IMG/VR virus record: IMGVR_UViG_3300002231_001575
Span: 1 to 41,657 of that record
Source of the DNA: a virus
Direction: 5' to 3' (one strand)
Length of the DNA stretch: 41,657 bases
A program made the translations under genes and the position numbers. Below, piece after piece: positions 30,421-39,957 of this stretch. Positions within the stretch are counted from its first letter, which is position 1. Each line of letters opens with the position of its first letter. The notes under the pieces were generated by a model. It saw only the letters and a list, made by a program, of their open reading frames with translations. It ran no database searches and had not been told where the DNA came from.

Positions 30421-30807
30421 TTACCTAAGCCTTTCGAGAAATAGTGTTACAGTTTGTGGTATACTCTGATTCAATATTCGATATGTTAGCTGTATTGTAT
30501 ATCCATTCTGAGCTGTATCAGGAGAAACCAAAATCTTAATCATTTCAACTCTTGGTTCATAATTTGCAATCGCTTCCGATACAGCAGATTCAATATCCAT
30601 TGCGGTTGCTGGAGAGATATTTTCAAATAATAATCTTCTTATGTTGCTCCCCAATTCGGGTTGGAATAATCTTTCTCCTTTAATAGTAAACAACAAATAC
30701 TGTAGTGCTCTTTTTACTGCAACATCACCTTCACTTACAACTAATTTATTCGTATTAGGATGTACTCTAAACGATAAATCTATATCTCGAAATACGACGG
30801 AAGGCAT
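30421..30807 (-). CDS. gp25: Baseplate wedge protein (gp25-like)
   Basis: gp25 joins sheath, gp6 and gp53 and is the most conserved part of contractile-tail baseplates, also found in type VI secretion systems as TssE. The 128 residues (T4: 132) show VKRALQYLLFTIKGERLFQP and ELGSNIRRLLFENIS, the signature EPR motif in ANYEPRVEMIKI, and a closing strand pair IQLTYRILNQSIPQTVTLFL. An exact late promoter box lies 29 bases upstream of the ATG, so a gp25-gp6-gp7 transcript may start here. Confidence 0.97.
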   Translation of the reverse strand: MPSVVFRDIDLSFRVHPNTNKLVVSEGDVAVKRALQYLLFTIKGERLFQPELGSNIRRLLFENISPATAMDIESAVSEAIANYEPRVEMIKILVSPDTAQNGYTIQLTYRILNQSIPQTVTLFLERLR

Positions 30808-30847: not shown

Positions 30848-32935
30848 TTATGCCAAATTTGCTGTCTCCTGAAATGATGGACTTCCAACTATTTTCATTA
30901 TTGGCGCGACTGATTTATTTTCGGCCAAAGTAAGATAACTTCTTGCTTGAGCCGCAATCGTATTCCATCTATATACCTCATTTTGCGTACCAACATCATA
31001 TGCCAAATAATCAGACTTAAACGATCCAAGCCACATTGTAGTATTTGCGGCAATTTCCTGACTAAAACTGCCATACAAATAAAACAATTCATCGACCTCG
31101 GGGTCAGTTAATATTGTACTATAAAAACGAGCATCACTATACATGGCTTTAATTATTCTACGGTTGGCCAATCTGTTCCCAAAACCACTGAGACATACTG
31201 CTCCATTGCTATATGGAATATGATCATTATTATCACGATCACCATTAACCGTGTACCCAGCATTGTTTACACTTGCAGTCGTCTGTGATGGTAATGTATA
31301 TGTGTTCGTACACTTATGCCCATCATCAACATTATACACATAAATTTTTGCTTTTCCTGGAGTTCCACTCGTGCGATAATCAAACGTCATTGCAATGAAA
31401 TTCCAAACATTCTGTTTTAGTATGTTTTCTCCCACAAGTGTTCTATTTGCGGCGCTCGCTCCCATATCGGCAGGAGTATCCGGATTAGAATCACTAACAG
31501 AAACACCAGAAATAATCAAATCCCAATATGCACCATCAACAAAACCAGGAGAGTAGCCATCACTGCTCGCTGAACTAAAATCGACATTTGCGGCCAATTG
31601 CCACCAATCTGGGCGAGAAATAATTCTTGTTCGGTCACCAATCGCTCCAGTAGGTCGAATCCAAAATGCCCATGTTTGCTGTTCGTAATTTTTCACTTCA
31701 TCATGTTTAGCAAGTCTCAGAGTTCCTCGTGGAGGCCTGATCGGAATAGAGGGAAACGCCAAATCACCCGATCCAAACAATGAATCACCATCCGGATCTG
31801 CAAAGAAAGTTGCGATACAATTTCCAGTTTTTCTGAATGCACCTGCTGGCTGAAGATCAGCATTATCGAGTGCATTAATTTGATACGACCCAAGACTACC
31901 TACAGGAATATTAGGATCATCGGGGCTAGTATAATAGGTCTGACCAAAAAGCGTATAGCTATTCGCATAATCAGGTTTCACTGGACCAAAATTGAATGGA
32001 GTTGCATTTTTTAAATCAATGATATTCTTAGACAAATTAGCATCAAGCCCATCTGGATTTAAAACAAAGCCATCAAGTGGCCACCTTGCAGCCACAATAG
32101 AGCCGCGCCTTTCATTTGTATGTCGTGACAACTCATCAATAATCGTATCTCCCATCTCCCGAACAGTTCGGCAAGTGTTACTAGTTCCAGCATCAAAGGC
32201 AGCAGTTTGTGCGACAGATAACCTAGCAGAATAACTTGTAGCATCTGATGGTATATGAGTGGTTGAATTAGCTGCGGGGCCGGCCAATAAAGTAGACCGA
32301 GTATTTGCATCAATTGATATACTAGAAAACATAGCAGAAATAATATTATCTGTTCCCATATCAGAACTAAAAGAGTCTGACTCTTTATAATTATCTCGAA
32401 CATTTAGTGCCTCGTCTACGTTGGACGTATTATATGTCTCAAACAGAGAAGGTTCAGCATTTGTGCTGCCAACGGAAGAACTTCTACCCAAACCATAACC
32501 AAGAGCAACACCAGAAATAACGTCAATGGTTGAATTTGCACCCATCGTCTGCGATGAGCCATTTGTCGTGACCACATAATCTGGGCTAGTGTTGACTCCA
32601 CTTCTGGCATCTGTATGAAACACAAACGAAGTGCAGGTATTCATATATAGATCCAAAAGATGAAGTATTTCGCTGTGTTGATTAGCATTGTAAGAGTTGG
32701 CAGTGCTAATCGGAGGATTCAATGAATTGGGCCAATCAGTATGATCATATAATATCACACCATCCGAATCTGGCGGCTTTAAATTTCCCATTTCAAGTCT
32801 TTGTGTGGCTGCTTTTTGTTTTAACTCAGCCAAAAATACATTTGCAGCAGCATACGGATTCACAAATACCGTACCGGATTCAATCTCACTAATAACCTTT
32901 TCTACTTTTACTGTGTTCGATGATAACAACGCCAT
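30848..32935 (-). CDS. LamG-domain virion structural protein
   Basis: A 695-residue protein not present in T4. Residues 1-120 (NTVKVEKVISEIESGTVFVN, VFLAELKQKAATQRLEMGNL) look helical and may be the attachment part. Residues about 395-640 form a LamG/concanavalin-like domain: QQTWAFWIRPTGAIGDRTRI, then LKQNVWNFIAMTFDYRTSG and YSDARFYSTILTDPEVDELF. This domain is closely similar to the insertion in the gp7-like protein. LamG folds bind carbohydrates or proteins, so binding of host surface glycan is plausible. The last about 60 residues (YLAYDVGTQNEVYRWNTIAA) are helical. GGAGGATAAATTTATATT precedes the ATG, overlapping the end of the PAAR gene. Confidence 0.75.
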   Translation of the reverse strand: MALLSSNTVKVEKVISEIESGTVFVNPYAAANVFLAELKQKAATQRLEMGNLKPPDSDGVILYDHTDWPNSLNPPISTANSYNANQHSEILHLLDLYMNTCTSFVFHTDARSGVNTSPDYVVTTNGSSQTMGANSTIDVISGVALGYGLGRSSSVGSTNAEPSLFETYNTSNVDEALNVRDNYKESDSFSSDMGTDNIISAMFSSISIDANTRSTLLAGPAANSTTHIPSDATSYSARLSVAQTAAFDAGTSNTCRTVREMGDTIIDELSRHTNERRGSIVAARWPLDGFVLNPDGLDANLSKNIIDLKNATPFNFGPVKPDYANSYTLFGQTYYTSPDDPNIPVGSLGSYQINALDNADLQPAGAFRKTGNCIATFFADPDGDSLFGSGDLAFPSIPIRPPRGTLRLAKHDEVKNYEQQTWAFWIRPTGAIGDRTRIISRPDWWQLAANVDFSSASSDGYSPGFVDGAYWDLIISGVSVSDSNPDTPADMGASAANRTLVGENILKQNVWNFIAMTFDYRTSGTPGKAKIYVYNVDDGHKCTNTYTLPSQTTASVNNAGYTVNGDRDNNDHIPYSNGAVCLSGFGNRLANRRIIKAMYSDARFYSTILTDPEVDELFYLYGSFSQEIAANTTMWLGSFKSDYLAYDVGTQNEVYRWNTIAAQARSYLTLAENKSVAPIMKIVGSPSFQETANLA

Positions 32936-32944
32936 AATATAAAT

Positions 32945-33247
32945 TTATCCTCCGACAAATACGTTTAGGGATCCAGTTATGACAACATTGCCAGGTCCAC
33001 ACGCAATAGTATCACCAACTCTCGACACAGGCATTCCATTTGCAAAAACATTCATAGATCCCTTGGCTAAAAAACCAGGATGGCAACCTTTATCGGGGCA
33101 GCAGTGAACATTAAATCCATCACTAATACGAAGCACAGGTTGCGCATTAATAAAGACATTCAGTGATCCCGGTCCTATAGCATTCTGTGGAGGAAAACAA
33201 TCATGACCACTACTCATAGAAGACATTAGTGCGGCAGGCATTGGCAT
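32945..33247 (-). CDS. PAAR-domain spike tip protein
   Basis: A 100-residue PAAR-repeat protein, the sharp tip on the central spike (compare T4 gp5.4). It has three PAAR-like turns, GPGSLNVFINAQPVLRISDG, KGSMNVFANGMPVSRVGDT and ITGSLNVFVGG, with metal-binding candidates in SSGHDCFPP, VHCCPDKGCHPG and IACGPG. The Cys/His content is unusually high, consistent with a bound Zn or Fe ion holding the tip together. It lies directly downstream of the spike gene, the usual order for a tip protein. AGAGGTGAATTAATT precedes the ATG. Confidence 0.9.
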   Translation of the reverse strand: MPMPAALMSSMSSGHDCFPPQNAIGPGSLNVFINAQPVLRISDGFNVHCCPDKGCHPGFLAKGSMNVFANGMPVSRVGDTIACGPGNVVITGSLNVFVGG

Positions 33248-33261
33248 AATTAATTCACCTC

Positions 33262-35247
33262 TTAGGTATTTAGCAAGATAACTCCAGCAGTATCCTGAAT
33301 CACTGCTGAATTTAAACCAAAATATCCAGATCTAGAATGAAATGGTGATTGCTGCGTAATACTAACTGGCGTAATATAAATTGCACTACCGGCAGAAGAT
33401 AGAACACCAGGGAAAGCTCCAGCAGCACCACATGCAATCGACTGAGCCAGGCCGGCCTGTATTGATTGAGTAATCGTAGTACGAATGCTCAAGAACGTCG
33501 AACTAATATTATACTGACCCCGAACATCCAAATTACTATTAATACCAACTGATTTACTTTCAGATGCCATTACCACCAAAGAACGGTTACCACTCAACGT
33601 CTTTCCAGTAGGACCAAATATACGAGAAGTTGTCTCAGTTCCAATTATATGCGACTCGTTGCCTTTCACTTCTAACTGGTAATCACTACCAATCTTTGTA
33701 GTTCTTTTTCCTGCAATATTTTCATCATACGAGCCAGCAGTAACAAATGCAGCCTCATCTCCATCTACCTTAACATTATATCGACCCTTAACCCATAAAT
33801 TATAATCACCATCAACTTGCTGCGTCAAGTTTCCTTTAGAATAAAGATAACAATCTCCATCTACAGTAACAAAACAAGCACCCTGAATATGTACCGCTTT
33901 ATTGTTTGCCGTCAATTCATAGTTGTCGCCTAAAATTCTAGTAACCTTGGTACCATCAGGATAAACTTCATAATAAGTTCCAATTCTATGCGACTCCTTA
34001 ATCCTCTCTCTTCCTGGTGTGTCATCGGATTCAAAAATATGACCACTCTCAGTTTCCCTTACAGAATTATATGGATACACAGCACCATATGGATCTTCCG
34101 GAAAAGTCAAACCCAATTCAATCCGCTTACCTACAACAGGAGTTGATGCTATCGTAAATGTATGTGCAGGATTAGTTCTTAATGAAATACCTCTAGCCAA
34201 CCTAGAAACATTTGACTCCACGTTATTCGCAACAAGAGGCCAGTTCTCAGATACTTCAACACCACCACCCATAAAATCAGGAACAATTTTTCGAGGAGCT
34301 AACTCTACAATACCATAAGAAACACCCACACCAGAATATGCCGTATCGCTTGGGTTTTTATCTCCTGGCCAAGTTCTCTCGCGATCATCAAAAACAGCAC
34401 CCGCACCAAAAGCAATGTTACTATTTGCTGCTCTTGGTATTTTAGCCTGATACCTCAACTGTGGATAATCATCACCATACTCAATATTAGTAAAAGCTCT
34501 CTGCGCTCTAGTCGGATCGGACTGAGTATCTATTCCAATTGTGCCAACATCTAATTCATACTTCAATGCTAACGATAATGCATCAGAAATTGAACTAACT
34601 TTAAATGTTCCCGTCAAAGGATCAAGAACGCCGGCCGTTTGCATTCCACTTTCGTTCATACTACTAAGAGCATTACCAGCTTCTTCTTTTTTTACAGGAC
34701 CATCTTTTTTCGTAATGCCTTTTACTTGCTTGCTTAAAAGATCAGTAACACTGATATCAGCAGATTTAGACACACCATTATCATCGCCACTCAATAATGC
34801 CGGAAGCTGAAGCGACGAAGCAAAACCACCTAAAGCATCACCAGCAGCAGCACATGCTGCACCAGATAAGAAACCATCAAAATCTTCAGCAGCACTAACT
34901 ATTCCCTGTGCAACTGCTTCTGCTTTCTGAAGATACGAATTTGCCGTATCGATGAAATCATCAAATTGATCTCTTGCCGCATCGATAACAGCATCTTTTG
35001 CAGTATCAATAGCTTCCTGTACATTCTGTTTTATTATATCCTCTACGCCACTAAGACCATCCAATCCTTGCAATCTCATTAGAATTGGATTTGCACCTAA
35101 AACTAAACTGCGCGCTTCTTGTAATATAGGCGATATAACACCCGTCACACTTAAAGGACTACCAAATGAGCTAACGATTGATGATATATCAGTCGGAAAA
35201 CTCAGATCAATACCTGAAAATGAAATGGGGCAAGATTTCTCAGCCAT
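33262..35247 (-). CDS. gp5: gp5-like central spike protein, beta-helix part, no lysozyme domain
   Basis: A 661-residue protein carrying the needle of the cell-puncturing device. The N-terminal about 150 residues are helical (IIKQNVQEAIDTAKDAVIDA, ARDQFDDFIDTANSYLQKAE) and may pack in the hub. The middle is a mixed beta region (LARGISLRTNPAHTFTIAST, then VGKRIELGLTFPEDPYGAVY). From about residue 425, Gp5_C-type octapeptide repeats build a triple-stranded beta-helix: YELTANNKAVHIQG, VDGDCYLYSKGNLTQQVDGD, YNLWVKGRYNVKVDGDEAAF, YQLEVKGNESHIIG. There is no segment resembling the T4 lysozyme domain of gp5. Its start overlaps the OB-fold gene by 8 bases, which suggests translational coupling of two halves of gp5. 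Confidence 0.88.
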   Translation of the reverse strand: MAEKSCPISFSGIDLSFPTDISSIVSSFGSPLSVTGVISPILQEARSLVLGANPILMRLQGLDGLSGVEDIIKQNVQEAIDTAKDAVIDAARDQFDDFIDTANSYLQKAEAVAQGIVSAAEDFDGFLSGAACAAAGDALGGFASSLQLPALLSGDDNGVSKSADISVTDLLSKQVKGITKKDGPVKKEEAGNALSSMNESGMQTAGVLDPLTGTFKVSSISDALSLALKYELDVGTIGIDTQSDPTRAQRAFTNIEYGDDYPQLRYQAKIPRAANSNIAFGAGAVFDDRERTWPGDKNPSDTAYSGVGVSYGIVELAPRKIVPDFMGGGVEVSENWPLVANNVESNVSRLARGISLRTNPAHTFTIASTPVVGKRIELGLTFPEDPYGAVYPYNSVRETESGHIFESDDTPGRERIKESHRIGTYYEVYPDGTKVTRILGDNYELTANNKAVHIQGACFVTVDGDCYLYSKGNLTQQVDGDYNLWVKGRYNVKVDGDEAAFVTAGSYDENIAGKRTTKIGSDYQLEVKGNESHIIGTETTSRIFGPTGKTLSGNRSLVVMASESKSVGINSNLDVRGQYNISSTFLSIRTTITQSIQAGLAQSIACGAAGAFPGVLSSAGSAIYITPVSITQQSPFHSRSGYFGLNSAVIQDTAGVILLNT

Positions 35248-35542
35248 TGAATGCCCCTGTATTGATTGTTCCTAATACTACACGATCTTGAAATGATCTT
35301 CCGTCTCTACAAAAACCTACAACCCACGTTCCCTCTTTTGGTGGATGTACAACCTGATCGTTGTTGAATGATAACATTGGATATGCCCAAGGTAAATCAT
35401 CCGTTGGTTGAATATTCCTATCTTCATTGTCCACACCAAAAGCACGAACGCGGACTCGACCAATACCAAAAGGATCCATTCTATCTTCTATTATTCCGAC
35501 AAACCAATAAAACGATCCATCACTACCAAGACCAGTTTTCAT
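35240..35542 (-). CDS. gp5 OB-fold domain as a separate gene
   Basis: A 100-residue protein equivalent to the N-terminal OB-fold of T4 gp5, which sits on the gp27 hub trimer. Recognisable parts are FYWFVGIIEDRMDPFGIGRV, RVRAFGVDNED, LPWAYPMLSF and HPPKEGTWVVGFCRDGRSFQ, then RVVLGTINTGAFNG. In T4 the OB domain, lysozyme and beta-helix are one chain of 575 residues; here the OB domain stands alone and its stop lies inside the spike gene start. The AAAGG used as ribosome-binding site is in the end of the kinase-like gene. Confidence 0.88.
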   Translation of the reverse strand: MKTGLGSDGSFYWFVGIIEDRMDPFGIGRVRVRAFGVDNEDRNIQPTDDLPWAYPMLSFNNDQVVHPPKEGTWVVGFCRDGRSFQDRVVLGTINTGAFNG

Positions 35543-35546
35543 AATT

Positions 35547-36560
35547 TTATGCCTTTAGTTCTTTTCTCTTAATTTCTTGGCGCACGGAAGGAGGAATTCT
35601 ATCTCCCATCCAATCATTCAGTTTCTTTTGAATTTCCTTATCAGCAATAAATCTCTTGCCTGCTTCTTTTACCTTCAGATAAGTAAACCCCTTAACAACA
35701 GGGAATGATCTGTTCTTTGGATTGTTAAACTTAGGAGTCACTTTAATTTCATTACCGTTCTTATCAGTCCAATAAACAGTAGACTTGCCTAAAATAACAT
35801 ACACACCACCATTCACATTCTTAGGAATATTTCCTCGAACAATATCTGACATCGTTCGTGCTGCGCCTTCATGCGTCTGCAATAAAATCTTACTAGGAAC
35901 TCTTCGATTTCTCTCCATATTTGCCTGTACTGCAAAGTCATAATCAGATAGTACCCAAACAATATGTATGTTCTCTGGTTGATATCCAACAGACAATAAT
36001 TGAGAAACTGCTTCGGTCATATTTCTAGTATTCTTCAGCGTCACATCAAAAACAATATTTGGCAAACGGTCTCTCGATTTCGCACCACCAAGAAGATAGT
36101 TTAGTGTCTTGTCTTTAATTCCAAGATTATCAACTAAGTTATGCAACGTAAATACATCATCTGCATTTCTCAAATCCAACTCGTCAAGATCCTTTTTTGG
36201 CATTTGAGGAATATTCGGAGAAGTTCCTTCTGGATCATTGGCATGAGATTTTGCATAATTCATCACAGCCTTTTTTCGTAGTTCAGTTCCACTAACACCT
36301 TTCTGCACCTTTGATGCATCTTTACGAATACCATCGAGCTTCATGAATGCACTCTTCCATTCGTCTACGTCACGAACCTTAAACTTATTGGCATCCATAT
36401 AATTACCTAAAGAGAATCCTTTACCAGATCCAGCACCGCCAGCTAGGAAAACAACCTGACCATAATTGGCTCCCTTTCCAATCACAATCAATTTCTCTTC
36501 TAGATATTCTTCGTGCAACAAAAGATTTTCATACTCTTCTGCGGTTAATGTAATAGACAT
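35547..36560 (-). CDS. P-loop kinase / zeta-toxin-like protein in hub cluster
   Basis: I place the start at the ATG at 36558-36560 (337 residues) because AGGAGA lies 7 bases upstream; a longer frame opens 34 codons earlier inside gp27 and is unlikely. Near residue 34 is VVFLAGGAGSGKGFSLGNYM, a Walker A P-loop (GGAGSGKG). After it come KVRDVDEWKSAFM (possible acidic base), PNIVFDVTLKNTRNM (strand end, like the zeta-toxin/polynucleotide-kinase fold), a strand NIHIVWVLSDYDFAVQANME and RNRRVPSKILLQTHEGA, a basic 'lid'-like stretch. The fold looks like a zeta-toxin or small-molecule kinase. The C-terminus is basic and helical (WMGDRIPPSVRQEIKRKELK). The substrate is unknown. It has no counterpart in T4's hub genes. 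Packed 10 bases after gp27 and 4 before the OB gene, it is surely expressed late. Confidence 0.75.
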   Translation of the reverse strand: MSITLTAEEYENLLLHEEYLEEKLIVIGKGANYGQVVFLAGGAGSGKGFSLGNYMDANKFKVRDVDEWKSAFMKLDGIRKDASKVQKGVSGTELRKKAVMNYAKSHANDPEGTSPNIPQMPKKDLDELDLRNADDVFTLHNLVDNLGIKDKTLNYLLGGAKSRDRLPNIVFDVTLKNTRNMTEAVSQLLSVGYQPENIHIVWVLSDYDFAVQANMERNRRVPSKILLQTHEGAARTMSDIVRGNIPKNVNGGVYVILGKSTVYWTDKNGNEIKVTPKFNNPKNRSFPVVKGFTYLKVKEAGKRFIADKEIQKKLNDWMGDRIPPSVRQEIKRKELKA

Positions 36561-36570
36561 TTTTTGTCTC

Positions 36571-37908
36571 CTAAAGTACAGGTTCGTCGAATGGCGTTGC
36601 AAATGTGTCTGTTGCCAATTCCATATCCATAGTATATGATGATTCTTTTCCAACTCCACCAATAGTTAGTGTGTGTGCTAAAGAAACTATCATATAGTTT
36701 CCCGATAAATATTTATGTGATTCCGAACCATCATCTGATACAGGAGTCATTGATGGTAGCTGCAAATTGACTACTTGACCCAACTTTCTTCTTGGATCTC
36801 CATATGCTTGAGCACTAATTCTAATTCCTTGATTTGGACCATACTGCACTGCATATGAATTATGCCCAAGAGTAAATTGATCAGAAACAGCACTCGACGT
36901 TCTGTTGTCCCACGTACCAAAATGCTTTGACGCAAGCGTATAATATACATCATGGTTATTGCCAATTTGGGTTTTATTAGTCTGATAAGCAGGAAAATTA
37001 GAACGAACATTCTCTCCATTCAAATGCACTGTCTCATCATATAGATCAAAATAATTATAATAATCAATTCCTGTTGATCTCAAAACCGAATCGTATGTTA
37101 GCCTTTTTCCAGAATATGCTCCCATCTTAGAATCATCAATTATAGACAATTCTCTAATTACCCTATATGCAAGCAAATTAGAAAACTTCTCTTCCACATT
37201 TCGTTCAGTTGGAGATTGAACGTCAAAACCAAAGGTATACTGTTTGATCGGCTCAAAAACTGAAAGCTCATCCAACGACGCCAATATAAACTGATCTGGG
37301 TTCTCAAAAAAATAATAATTTGAAGAAGACCTATATCTGCTAGATTGCGCCTTCGCAGCTAGCCATTCAATAGCATTATATGGACTAAGATTCGGAATAG
37401 TAAATGAATGAGAACCAACTGATGGATCAAGCACACCGATAGGTTTAGGCCTAATAGATACAAATAAATATTCATCAAATATAGACCTAATAATATCTGT
37501 AATTTTTAGATTTTTATATGTCTTTCTAATTTTAGTTTGTGTGCTTAAAAAATATTCCAACGAAACAAAAGACAAAACATAAACTTGGCCTCTATCACCA
37601 ATACCTCTTGATCTATCTTTCACCTCAGCAATTGCGCCAAAAAAAGTTATTCGTTCCTCGATAGTAGGAACACTAAACTCTATTTCAATATACTCATTAC
37701 CATGAATACCAAACTGCTGGTCTAAACCAAGACCATCAGTAATTGTTATTTGCCCACTTATTCCTTGCTGGTATATACTAGTATACAATTCAATGTTATT
37801 GACCATCTGGCGAACGTCAACTACATCACCACCAGAAGTCAAGATGTTTAATTTATCTAAAGAATAATCCCCAGGCTGAATTATTTCATTTGTTCGATTG
37901 GTAGCCAT
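36571..37908 (-). CDS. gp27: Baseplate hub protein (gp27-like)
   Basis: gp27 forms the trimeric hub that links tail tube to the gp5 spike. The 445-residue protein (T4: 391) has the hub-type N-terminal beta domain: VVDVRQMVNNIELYTSIYQQ, GQITITDGLGLDQQFGIHGN and EYIEIEFSVP, followed by FSLEYFLSTQ-like sequence and IRKTYKNLKITDIIRSIFDE. The middle SPYNAIEWLAAKAQSSRY with YYFFENPDQFILASLDEL matches the second hub domain, and the end (KYLSGNYMIVSLAHTLTIGG) fits as the last tube-like domain. Similarity is at the fold level; the position directly before the gp5 halves supports it. It starts 1 base after the gp53 stop. Confidence 0.8.
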   Translation of the reverse strand: MATNRTNEIIQPGDYSLDKLNILTSGGDVVDVRQMVNNIELYTSIYQQGISGQITITDGLGLDQQFGIHGNEYIEIEFSVPTIEERITFFGAIAEVKDRSRGIGDRGQVYVLSFVSLEYFLSTQTKIRKTYKNLKITDIIRSIFDEYLFVSIRPKPIGVLDPSVGSHSFTIPNLSPYNAIEWLAAKAQSSRYRSSSNYYFFENPDQFILASLDELSVFEPIKQYTFGFDVQSPTERNVEEKFSNLLAYRVIRELSIIDDSKMGAYSGKRLTYDSVLRSTGIDYYNYFDLYDETVHLNGENVRSNFPAYQTNKTQIGNNHDVYYTLASKHFGTWDNRTSSAVSDQFTLGHNSYAVQYGPNQGIRISAQAYGDPRRKLGQVVNLQLPSMTPVSDDGSESHKYLSGNYMIVSLAHTLTIGGVGKESSYTMDMELATDTFATPFDEPVL

Positions 37909-37909
37909 A

Positions 37910-38821
37910 TCAAATTTGCATTAGCCCCTTAAACTCCTGAATAAAAGGATCCAACAATTCTGGACGCAATATTAATATCGACCGCCTCTCATCATTCAAA
38001 TCGTTTTCGTAATCAAAACGATTAATCGCCTTAACTGAAATTGCAGGATTATCATAATCTCGAATATCAGTAGTTGATTTTGAATAGATAATATCTCCAG
38101 CAGGTCCCGTTCTAGTTCTTTCAAAATGATGAACATTGAAAAGAGCAGTCACAGATTCTCCAACACCTGGCTCTGTATTCGCATTAAACGTATTAAAAGT
38201 AGAACAATCTAAATCAGTGGTAAATTCAGTATCACTATCCACAGAAACCACAGTCTGAGATGCGCCATATGGAATCTTTTGTATTCCAGGAACAAACTTA
38301 GGATCATTCACACCCGTAACATCTGTATACCAAGAATATGGTACAGATAATGAAACCTCATCTCCCACGAATACTTTGTTTTCAATACTTTCTACAGATG
38401 TGAATTTTGTTTGGAATTCTCCACCGACAATAACACTTCTAACATTTCCTCTAACATCAGCAACACCGTCATAAATTTTAATAGATGTCACTTGAACCTT
38501 TCTCTCACCTTCTCCATATTTCGATTCAAGATAACCTAAAAACTGATCAGTAGTTAGCGCAGTTTGATATACAGGATCCTGAATACTATTAACCAGTAAT
38601 AGCACCCAATGAAATTTGGAGCTTCCATAAAATTTATATGATATATCCTCAAGTCTTTCAGAATCTTTCATGCTGTATCCATAAAATAACGTCTTATCTG
38701 AAAGCTGATTGGCAACTACACGAACCCTCTTCATCACATCCACAACAACCTTACTATCACCAAGACCATCTTGATCATATTCAATAGTAGGAAACATTTG
38801 AAAATACGATTGGCGTGCCAT
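37910..38821 (-). CDS. gp53: Baseplate wedge protein (gp53-like)
   Basis: gp53 binds gp25 and gp6 and locks wedges around the hub. The N-terminal half carries the diagnostic MARQSYFQMFPTIEYDQ, ANQLSDKTLFYGYSMKDSER and LEDISYKFYGSSKFHWVLLL, the LysM-like segment of gp53, followed by QDPVYQTALTTDQFLGYLES. T4 gp53 is 196 residues; here it is 303, with a beta-rich extension in the middle (VFVGDEVSLSVPYSWYTDVT) and an end NDERRSILILRPELLDPFIQ that resembles the family's C-terminus. Start and stop lie within 2 bases of both neighbours. Confidence 0.93.
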   Translation of the reverse strand: MARQSYFQMFPTIEYDQDGLGDSKVVVDVMKRVRVVANQLSDKTLFYGYSMKDSERLEDISYKFYGSSKFHWVLLLVNSIQDPVYQTALTTDQFLGYLESKYGEGERKVQVTSIKIYDGVADVRGNVRSVIVGGEFQTKFTSVESIENKVFVGDEVSLSVPYSWYTDVTGVNDPKFVPGIQKIPYGASQTVVSVDSDTEFTTDLDCSTFNTFNANTEPGVGESVTALFNVHHFERTRTGPAGDIIYSKSTTDIRDYDNPAISVKAINRFDYENDLNDERRSILILRPELLDPFIQEFKGLMQI

Positions 38822-38823
38822 AA

Positions 38824-39957
38824 TTAAAACCCTTGAGAAATATGTTCTTTTGTAACGATTGCAATTTCCATAAAGCGCAACGTCATTTGTGTCTGAACTG
38901 GATGCCCATCATAAAAAGTGGAATTTACTTCAAAAGGATTTCTAGTAATCTGAATATCCGTCAAAGCACAAGGATGGAATTTGTGTACTTTATCCTCATT
39001 AAAATATGCAATATTAAATACGTCAGGATAAGAAAAGACTACACCATTTCCTCCGTTATCATAAGCAGGTGCCGAAAAATATTTAAACATCTTGATAATC
39101 TGCTGTACTTCATTTGCTTCTTTTCTGGACCTAGGAGCAAAGGTAAAAGAAAAATTAAATTCACGAAAATTAACACTACTAAACAATGCTTCAAGATGTG
39201 GATTTAACGCTTGGCTAGTCAAACGCTTCAATGCTGCTCCACCCAAATCCTGAGCACCAATCAAAGTACCTAATGCATCACCTGCGGCTTTTGTAGCAAA
39301 AGCTGCACCATCGCGACTATTTTGCATCTGATTCATCATTCTAGTAATAGCAGCTTTAGGTCCTTGAGAAATACCTTGAGTCGCTGTCTGAAGACCCTGC
39401 CCGGCGACTGGACCCAGTGCTGCACCGGTCCACTGTGGGCTATATGATTCTGACATACTCGGTGGGCTATACAAAGTAATAGATCCATGACTGGTACTTT
39501 TACTACTTCCATTAACAGAATCAATAATACCAGATATAAAACCAGCAGCTTCAATCAGCCCAGGAACTTTTTTAGCAATCTTACCCGACAAATTAATTGC
39601 CGCACCTTCAATTGCTTTTTCCGCAAAACCCCCAACCAGTCCTCCAACAACTTCACCAAACCTTTCAGCACTCGATAAATCACTCTTAGAACGTCGCAAT
39701 TTACTACTAGCAATCGAACTTCTTTTAGGTATTGCATCAGCCTGCAATGTCGCACCACGAATAGTTAAAGGCTCAAATCGAACAAAATGCATCTCTTCTG
39801 GACCTTCAACATCAAGAGGATACCGTAATGATACAAACTTCTCAACCTGAGTTGGAGCATTTACTACTTGATTCTGAAGATCCTCAAACGTATCCGAAAA
39901 TGTCTCATAAGCTATTTCGGTTTCTGTTTTATCTGGCGTCGGATTATCTGATGACAT
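38824..39957 (-). CDS. gp48: Baseplate tail-tube cap (gp48-like)
   Basis: gp48 sits on the hub with gp54 and starts tail-tube growth. The 377-residue protein (T4: 364) has a variable N-terminal half with a small-residue-rich helix region (VVGGLVGGFAEKAIEGAAIN, VPGLIEAAGFISGIIDSVNG) and a C-terminal tube-like domain: VNFREFNFSFTFAPRSRKEA, VQQIIKMFKYFSAPAYDN, VVFSYPDVFNIAYF and LTDIQITRNPFEVNSTFYDG with QTQMTLRFMEIAIV. That C-terminal pattern is the gp48/gp54/gp19 tube fold. A CATAAATA box 27 bases upstream is a candidate late promoter. Confidence 0.88.
   Translation of the reverse strand: MSSDNPTPDKTETEIAYETFSDTFEDLQNQVVNAPTQVEKFVSLRYPLDVEGPEEMHFVRFEPLTIRGATLQADAIPKRSSIASSKLRRSKSDLSSAERFGEVVGGLVGGFAEKAIEGAAINLSGKIAKKVPGLIEAAGFISGIIDSVNGSSKSTSHGSITLYSPPSMSESYSPQWTGAALGPVAGQGLQTATQGISQGPKAAITRMMNQMQNSRDGAAFATKAAGDALGTLIGAQDLGGAALKRLTSQALNPHLEALFSSVNFREFNFSFTFAPRSRKEANEVQQIIKMFKYFSAPAYDNGGNGVVFSYPDVFNIAYFNEDKVHKFHPCALTDIQITRNPFEVNSTFYDGHPVQTQMTLRFMEIAIVTKEHISQGF

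What the first reader, a model, noticed from the sequence alone, without database searches (positions are those of the whole stretch)
35547..36560. P-loop kinase / zeta-toxin-like gene embedded between hub (gp27) and spike (gp5)
The Walker A GGAGSGKG, the acidic DVDEW, the VFDVT strand and the R-rich lid-like region suggest an active phosphotransferase. A catalytic protein exactly between two hub genes, with no counterpart in T4, could be a virion-packaged effector injected with the spike, an assembly factor or a structural protein that has kept an ATP site. This is the strongest candidate for an undescribed function in the window.
Basis: partly seen in the sequence, partly recalled or inferred. 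Interest (0 to 1): 0.75.

Follow-up and report, generated by a model that had tools for sequence, protein, structure and literature searches.

The report
Swappable phage kinase in baseplate operon
A gene for an apparently intact zeta-toxin-like kinase sits between two tail-tip genes of an uncultivated T4-type phage, and because dozens of distant phages carry and swap the same gene at this or other places it looks like a cargo enzyme aimed at the host cell rather than a part of the tail.

Summary
In detail: window 35547-36560 (-) encodes a 337-aa protein with GGAGSGKG, DVDEWK, FDVTLK and NxxRxRxVP, directly between the gp27 hub and gp5 spike genes. It belongs to PHROG 5268 (unknown function). 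All 46 diverse members tested match Pfam Zeta_toxin, the P-loop is invariant, and the predicted fold matches epsilon/zeta toxin, PezT, AvrRxo1 and polynucleotide kinase. The arrangement is not one-off: 15 non-redundant IMG/VR loci (36 with near-duplicates) read gp48-gp53-gp27-kinase-gp5. But the junction is empty in 14 of 20 related loci chosen without regard to the kinase, and the kinase is exchanged independently of the hub: window versus L007, kinase DNA 96% (dS 0.13), hub protein 47%, with the jump near the ORF ends. Elsewhere (KP15, RB43, other phages) the gene lies outside the baseplate, and many of those members carry a leader like the T4 capsid-targeting sequence; the hub-junction members, this one included, do not. 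Best reading: an accessory zeta-superfamily kinase cargo of T4-superfamily phages, probably head-packaged and injected in some lineages, expressed with the late baseplate genes here. Substrate and virion presence are unproven. New variant of a predicted theme; moderate interest.

The parts
35547..36560 (-). CDS of the zeta-toxin-superfamily P-loop kinase (337 aa)
36568..36572 (-). Shine-Dalgarno AGGAG of the kinase, overlapping the gp27 stop codon
36495..36503 (-). L20-x-E22, near-invariant in the family (L/I 46/46, E 46/46); matches the T4 gp21 cleavage motif L/I-x-E, but its use as a cleavage site is inference
36417..36440 (-). Walker A (P-loop) GGAGSGKG, residues 41-48; K47 invariant
36354..36371 (-). 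DVDEWK, residues 64-69; D66 and K69 invariant; candidate catalytic base (zeta Asp67 equivalent, inferred)
36033..36050 (-). FDVTLK, residues 171-176, after strand 169-172; D172 and T174 invariant; candidate substrate-phosphate site (zeta Thr118/Arg120 equivalents, inferred)
35898..35921 (-). Lid-like NMERNRRV, residues 214-221; N214, R217, R219 and V221 invariant
36571..37908 (-). gp27-like baseplate hub (flank)
35240..35542 (-). gp5 OB-domain protein (flank; gp5 is split here)
33262..35247 (-). gp5 C-terminal needle protein, no lysozyme domain hit (flank)
32945..33247 (-). PAAR spike tip protein (flank)
37910..38821 (-). gp53-like baseplate wedge (flank)
38824..39957 (-). gp48/54-like tail-tube cap (flank)
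30421..30807 (-). gp25-like baseplate wedge (flank)

Best explanation
The gene encodes an active small-molecule-type kinase of the zeta-toxin/polynucleotide-kinase branch of P-loop kinases: ATP in the GGAGSGKG loop, D66 as general base, an R217/R219 lid, and T174/K176 near the acceptor phosphate. It is accessory cargo, not a structural part of the hub. In this phage clade the gene occupies a fixed slot between gp27 and gp5, so it is made late, together with the baseplate, and can be lost or replaced independently of the hub. In related phages the same enzyme sits elsewhere and often carries a T4-type capsid-targeting leader, so the most likely role of the family is an enzyme loaded into the virion, delivered with the DNA, and acting early on a host nucleotide-type metabolite. 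Shown: homology, invariant motifs, fold, synteny, gene exchange, leader enrichment. Inferred: catalytic roles of residues, substrate class, packaging and delivery.
For: Zeta_toxin Pfam hit in 46/46 members, best 4e-10. AF2 model (pLDDT 72.6) hits epsilon/zeta-substrate complex 3q8x at 6e-5, AvrRxo1 at 7.5e-5, PezT, 1gvn, then Clostridium Pnk (TMt 0.64); a second family member gives the same group plus PFK-2. Motifs invariant in 46/46. Two different inteins inserted inside this Walker A. gp27-kinase-gp5 in 15 non-redundant loci and 36 in all; junction empty in 14 of 20 gp6-selected loci and in L013-L015. Kinase/hub uncoupled: window-L007 kinase dS 0.13 versus saturated flanks, with the identity jump close to the ORF ends; L026-L045 likewise; L060-L063 the reverse. 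CTS-like leader in 14/43 non-hub members, 0/15 hub members, 29/997 background ORFs; strings of leader-bearing genes round L065 and L036 kinases. T4 IPII/IPIII leader checked, CTS biology in PMC9026906.
Against: The window protein itself lacks a CTS-like leader (0/15 hub-junction members have one), so packaging is least supported exactly here. No virion proteomics covering this family was found. TM-scores to zeta structures are low (0.34-0.46) with large rmsd, and the model is of medium confidence. Walker A has Gly-Phe where Ser/Thr usually follows Lys, so metal binding must differ. The substrate is not identified. The leader comparison is not corrected for phylogeny.
Confidence: 0.5

Rival explanations
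1. Late, non-packaged cytosolic enzyme: the kinase is simply expressed from the late operon and works in the infected cell on nucleotides, NAD or sugar nucleotides; its position is a matter of expression timing.
For: No capsid leader in hub-junction members. Straboviridae homologues lie in a non-structural region beside an NT5C 5'(3')-deoxyribonucleotidase, and the unrelated L058 has the same pairing, which hints at nucleotide metabolism. AvrRxo1, a fold neighbour, is reported to phosphorylate NAD (PMC5491322 abstract).
Against: Does not explain the capsid-targeting-like leader and leader-gene strings of many non-hub members.
Confidence: 0.3
2. Tail-delivered effector: the kinase docks on the hub or spike and is carried into the cell with the needle, like cargo of contractile injection systems.
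For: Exact and recurrent position between hub and spike genes, tight coupling to gp27 (ribosome-binding site overlapping its stop), and loss of the capsid leader only in the hub-junction members.
Against: The same kinase is carried with hubs only 47% identical and is swapped independently of them, which is not expected of a tightly hub-docked protein. No fusion to gp5 or PAAR was seen.
Confidence: 0.1
3. Structural or assembly protein of the baseplate (chaperone with an ATP site).
For: Gene order in a strict baseplate operon.
Against: Absent from 14 of 20 related junctions and from L013-L015; homologues in other phages lie far from baseplate genes; exchanged independently of hub and spike; catalytic motifs invariant.
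Confidence: 0.06
4. Classic zeta toxin of a toxin-antitoxin module (UDP-GlcNAc kinase with an epsilon antitoxin).
For: Closest solved fold is epsilon/zeta with UNAG; a Thr and a basic residue lie where zeta Thr118/Arg120 would be expected (inference).
Against: No conserved adjacent antitoxin gene: a 76-77 aa neighbour occurs in one subclade only and a 106 aa one in another; no NCBIfam or PADLOC hit; sub-threshold Pfam score for the window protein.
Confidence: 0.04

Closest known systems
PHROG 5268 / KP15_200 and RB43, Aeromonas phage 65 homologues (some records annotated 'zeta toxin')
   Same: Same family: PHROG E 1e-51, 33-37% identity, identical P-loop and DVD/FDVTLK/NxxRxR motifs
   Different: Those genes lie near hoc, inh, tRNA or nucleotidase genes, not between hub and spike; many begin with a T4-like leader
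Epsilon/zeta and PezAT toxins (1gvn, 3q8x, 2p5t)
   Same: P-loop kinase fold, top fold-search hits, Pfam Zeta_toxin in all members
   Different: No antitoxin gene, GKGF instead of GKT/S P-loop end, extra C-terminal beta region, low TM-score, substrate untested
Zeta-toxin-like kinase domains of polyvalent and MuF-fused phage proteins (PMC5512222)
   Same: Zeta-like kinase predicted to be packaged in the virion and injected
   Different: There fused to MuF or other domains; here a stand-alone protein with, at most, a short leader
AvrRxo1 (NAD kinase effector, zeta superfamily; PMC5491322)
   Same: Second or best fold hit; precedent for an injected zeta-like kinase with a non-UNAG substrate
   Different: A bacterial type III effector acting on plants; no sequence similarity was tested here
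T4 internal head proteins IPI-III and Alt
   Same: Leader MKTYQEFIAEA resembles leaders of many non-hub members; virion-injected cargo model
   Different: IPs are not kinases, Alt is an ADP-ribosyltransferase; the window protein lacks the leader

Membership tests
P-loop kinase superfamily | Walker A with conserved Lys | tested here: met
   GGxxSGK invariant, K47 46/46; the following residue is Gly rather than Ser/Thr
P-loop kinase superfamily | Kinase-type parallel-strand fold with P-loop after strand 1 | tested here: met
   Strands 36-41, 61-64, 169-172, 198-205, 253-258 alternate with helices; fold search prob 1.0 to kinases
Zeta toxin (PF06414) | Profile match | tested here: met
   46/46 members at E<=0.01, best 4.4e-10; the window protein alone 2.4e-4, just below the gathering score
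Zeta toxin | Catalytic Asp after strand 2 and substrate Thr/Arg (zeta Asp67, Thr118, Arg120) | tested here: inconclusive
   D66, T174 46/46 and K176 40/46 sit after the matching strands, but no residue-level structural superposition was available
Zeta toxin-antitoxin module | Adjacent epsilon/PezA-type antitoxin gene | tested here: not met
   No recurrent small partner across contexts
Zeta toxin | UNAG 3'-kinase activity and toxicity | not testable with these tools
   Needs enzymology
Polynucleotide kinase | Fold match to Pnk kinase domain | tested here: inconclusive
   4gp6 E 8e-4, TMt 0.64; worse E-value than zeta, better target TM-score
T4 capsid-targeted internal proteins | N-terminal CTS: aromatic at 4 and 7, L/I-x-E cleavage site at 8-10 | tested here: not met
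   Not in the window protein or any of 15 hub-junction members; present in 11/43 (exact spacing) to 14/43 (shifted) non-hub members versus 2-3% of background ORFs
T4 baseplate hub components | Universally present structural gene co-inherited with gp27/gp5 | tested here: not met
   Empty junction in 14/20 loci and dS uncoupling from gp27

The most novel reading that the evidence does not exclude
The same kinase has two alternative loading routes in T4-superfamily virions: capsid packaging by a cleavable leader in some lineages, and loading at the tail hub/spike in the lineages where the gene moved between gp27 and gp5 and lost the leader, so that a contractile phage tail delivers a catalytic effector.
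Probability: 0.12. Interest if true: 0.8.

Novelty: new variant of a known kind. Interest (0 to 1): 0.5.

Why it matters
It links an unnamed but widespread phage family (PHROG 5268, over 200 isolate records and 267 IMG/VR matches) to the zeta-toxin kinase superfamily, shows that it behaves as exchangeable cargo in a fixed slot of the baseplate operon, and points to virion packaging in many relatives. If packaging holds, these phages inject a metabolite kinase at the start of infection, which can be tested in cultured phages such as RB43.

Tried and rejected
One-off insertion in a single virus: rejected, 36 loci share the slot. Essential hub component: rejected by empty junctions and uncoupled inheritance. 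Degraded pseudo-kinase: rejected, motifs invariant and dN/dS low. Toxin-antitoxin pair: no conserved partner. Defence-system protein: no PADLOC hit in the window protein, only single weak chance hits in the family. Strict single origin of the hub-junction members: not shown, 6 changes on the kinase tree, at least 2 forced by supported branches. phmmer and profile search against PDB sequences gave no significant relative. The gp27 alignment was too diverged to scan with, so gp6 was used. No structural RNA in the junction. Literature searches found no proteomics naming this protein as a virion component; PMC13119998 did virion MS, but on Jiaodavirus phages, and the terms searched there did not mention a zeta protein.

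Full report
Observation. The ORF at 35547-36560 (minus strand, 337 aa, ATG start) is real and at the stated coordinates. It has a Shine-Dalgarno sequence overlapping the gp27 stop. Its neighbours on the same strand are gp48-like, gp53-like and gp27-like genes upstream, and a split gp5 (OB protein, then needle), PAAR, gp25 and gp6 downstream. The window is part of a 45.8-kb IMG/VR virus record.

Family. PHROG 5268 (unknown function) matches at 1e-51; 206 isolate phage records have a relative, mostly Straboviridae of Klebsiella, Enterobacter, Cronobacter and Aeromonas, plus Tenacibaculum and Vibrio phages. An alignment-based scan of IMG/VR found 267 relatives, 80 kept. The family is almost absent from bacterial genome contigs (three hits).

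Kinase identity. Pfam Zeta_toxin hits all 46 members of a diverse alignment, best 4.4e-10; the window protein alone is just below threshold. G41, G42, S45, G46, K47, G48, F49, D66, K69, H140, N168, D172, T174, N214, R217, R219 and H230 are invariant over 46 members. The AF2 model (pLDDT 72.6, pTM 0.69) has a P-loop kinase element order. Foldseek against PDB ranks epsilon/zeta toxin with substrate first (6e-5), then AvrRxo1, PezT, zeta 1gvn and Clostridium polynucleotide kinase. A second member (pLDDT 78.8) gives AvrRxo1, PFK-2, zeta, Pnk, adenylate kinase and dephospho-CoA kinase. TM-scores to zeta are only 0.34-0.46, so the claim is 'zeta/Pnk-type P-loop kinase', not 'zeta toxin'. The P-loop ends GKGF, so the usual Ser/Thr is missing; this is a family-wide state, not decay. 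Inteins in two members lie exactly in the Walker A (GGAG/SGKG): Tenacibaculum phage PTm1 gp187 and L078. Inteins are known to favour conserved active sites (general knowledge), which fits a functional site.

Genome setting. In 15 non-redundant loci the order gp48-gp53-gp27-kinase-gp5 is kept; 36 loci with near-duplicates. Hubs in this set are as little as 19-28% identical to the window's, so the slot is widespread or ancient. It is not universal: of 20 loci picked by gp6 alone in which the gp27/gp5 junction is visible, 6 (several of them related) have the kinase and 14 do not, and L013-L015, whose gp5-OB is 77% identical to the window's, lack it. In L001 (LR756508), KP15, Morganella Mm5, Aeromonas 65, RB43, PTm1 and others the gene lies in non-baseplate regions.

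Exchange. Window and L007 share the kinase at 96.4% DNA identity with dS 0.13, while hub, gp6, gp25 and gp5-OB have dS above 1.3 or saturated. Identity jumps from about 65-70% to 96-100% at the kinase start codon and falls off towards its stop. L026-L045 repeats the pattern (kinase dS 0.12, hub 64% identical), and L060-L063 shows the reverse (kinase dS 0.81, hub 0.25). So the kinase moves independently of the hub, which argues against a tightly co-adapted structural role. On the kinase tree the hub-junction members are clustered but not one clade.

Leader. T4 IPII/IPIII begin MKTYQEFIAEA; residues 4 and 7 drive targeting and 8 and 10 processing, with L/I-x-E cleaved by gp21 (PMC9026906). The pattern M-x2-[FYWLV]-x2-[FYWH]-[ILVM]-x-E occurs in 11/43 non-hub members (14/43 allowing a shift), 0/15 hub-junction members and 2-3% of other ORFs in the same loci (Fisher p about 1e-10 versus background, 0.012 hub versus non-hub, not corrected for phylogeny). 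In L065 eight nearby small genes share the leader with the kinase, in L036 three; such leaders are rare in control loci (2/815 ORFs in the gp6-selected loci, 1/217 in genome G001). This resembles the T4 internal-protein arrays. The window protein lacks the leader but keeps the family-wide L-x-E just before the kinase core; whether that is cleaved is unknown.

Mechanism. Most likely an ATP-dependent kinase of a host small molecule, made late and, at least in leader-bearing relatives, packaged and injected. A 2017 analysis predicted injected zeta-like kinases in MuF-fused and polyvalent proteins (PMC5512222). Substrate candidates: UDP-GlcNAc (zeta precedent, PMC3062530), NAD (AvrRxo1 precedent, PMC5491322 abstract) or a nucleotide, since an NT5C nucleotidase gene is adjacent in Straboviridae and in L058. 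The sequence does not decide among them.

Verdict. Real, conserved, and an intact-looking enzyme; more interesting as a mobile cargo family with a likely packaging signal in relatives than as a hub protein. New variant of a known kind; interest 0.5.

Noticed in passing
L017:3762-5603 (Tenacibaculum phage PTm1 gp187) and L078:3748-5175: Two different inteins inserted at the same point of the kinase Walker A (GGAG^C...N^SGKGF); L078 hits Intein_splicing at 7e-13, PTm1 has a weak LAGLIDADG hit.
   Followed up: partly
L065:2217-5143 and L036:7074-9886: Strings of small genes sharing a T4 capsid-targeting-like leader (MKSVDEFLDE, MKTVQEFLKE, MKSFKVFLTE...) next to the kinase, resembling internal-protein arrays.
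   Followed up: partly
L060:5763-5993, L070:6945-7175, also L122, L133, L148, L149, L157: A 76-78 aa gene with a leader-like start (MKTFKQFI/YL) and a conserved WALVSKKTGKPLRYYKGEGKPSDEW core lies between kinase and gp5 in one subclade; no Pfam hit for the L060 copy.
   Followed up: partly
window 33262-35542: gp5 is split into a 100-aa OB protein and a 661-aa needle protein, with no lysozyme domain hit in either; PAAR tip follows.
   Followed up: no
window 30848-32935: 695-aa protein between PAAR and gp25 with no Pfam or PHROG hit; only about 39% identical over parts in L007.
   Followed up: partly
L006 versus window 31349-31546: The near-identical IMG/VR contig differs from the window by three single-base indels inside the 695-aa gene, probably assembly errors in one of them.
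   Followed up: yes
L089:2469-3719, L097:4859-6064, L058:3641-4612, L086:6866-7288: An N-terminal domain (about 115 aa, HFxxRxNDxR motif) is fused to two kinases and occurs as a separate protein near two others.
   Followed up: no
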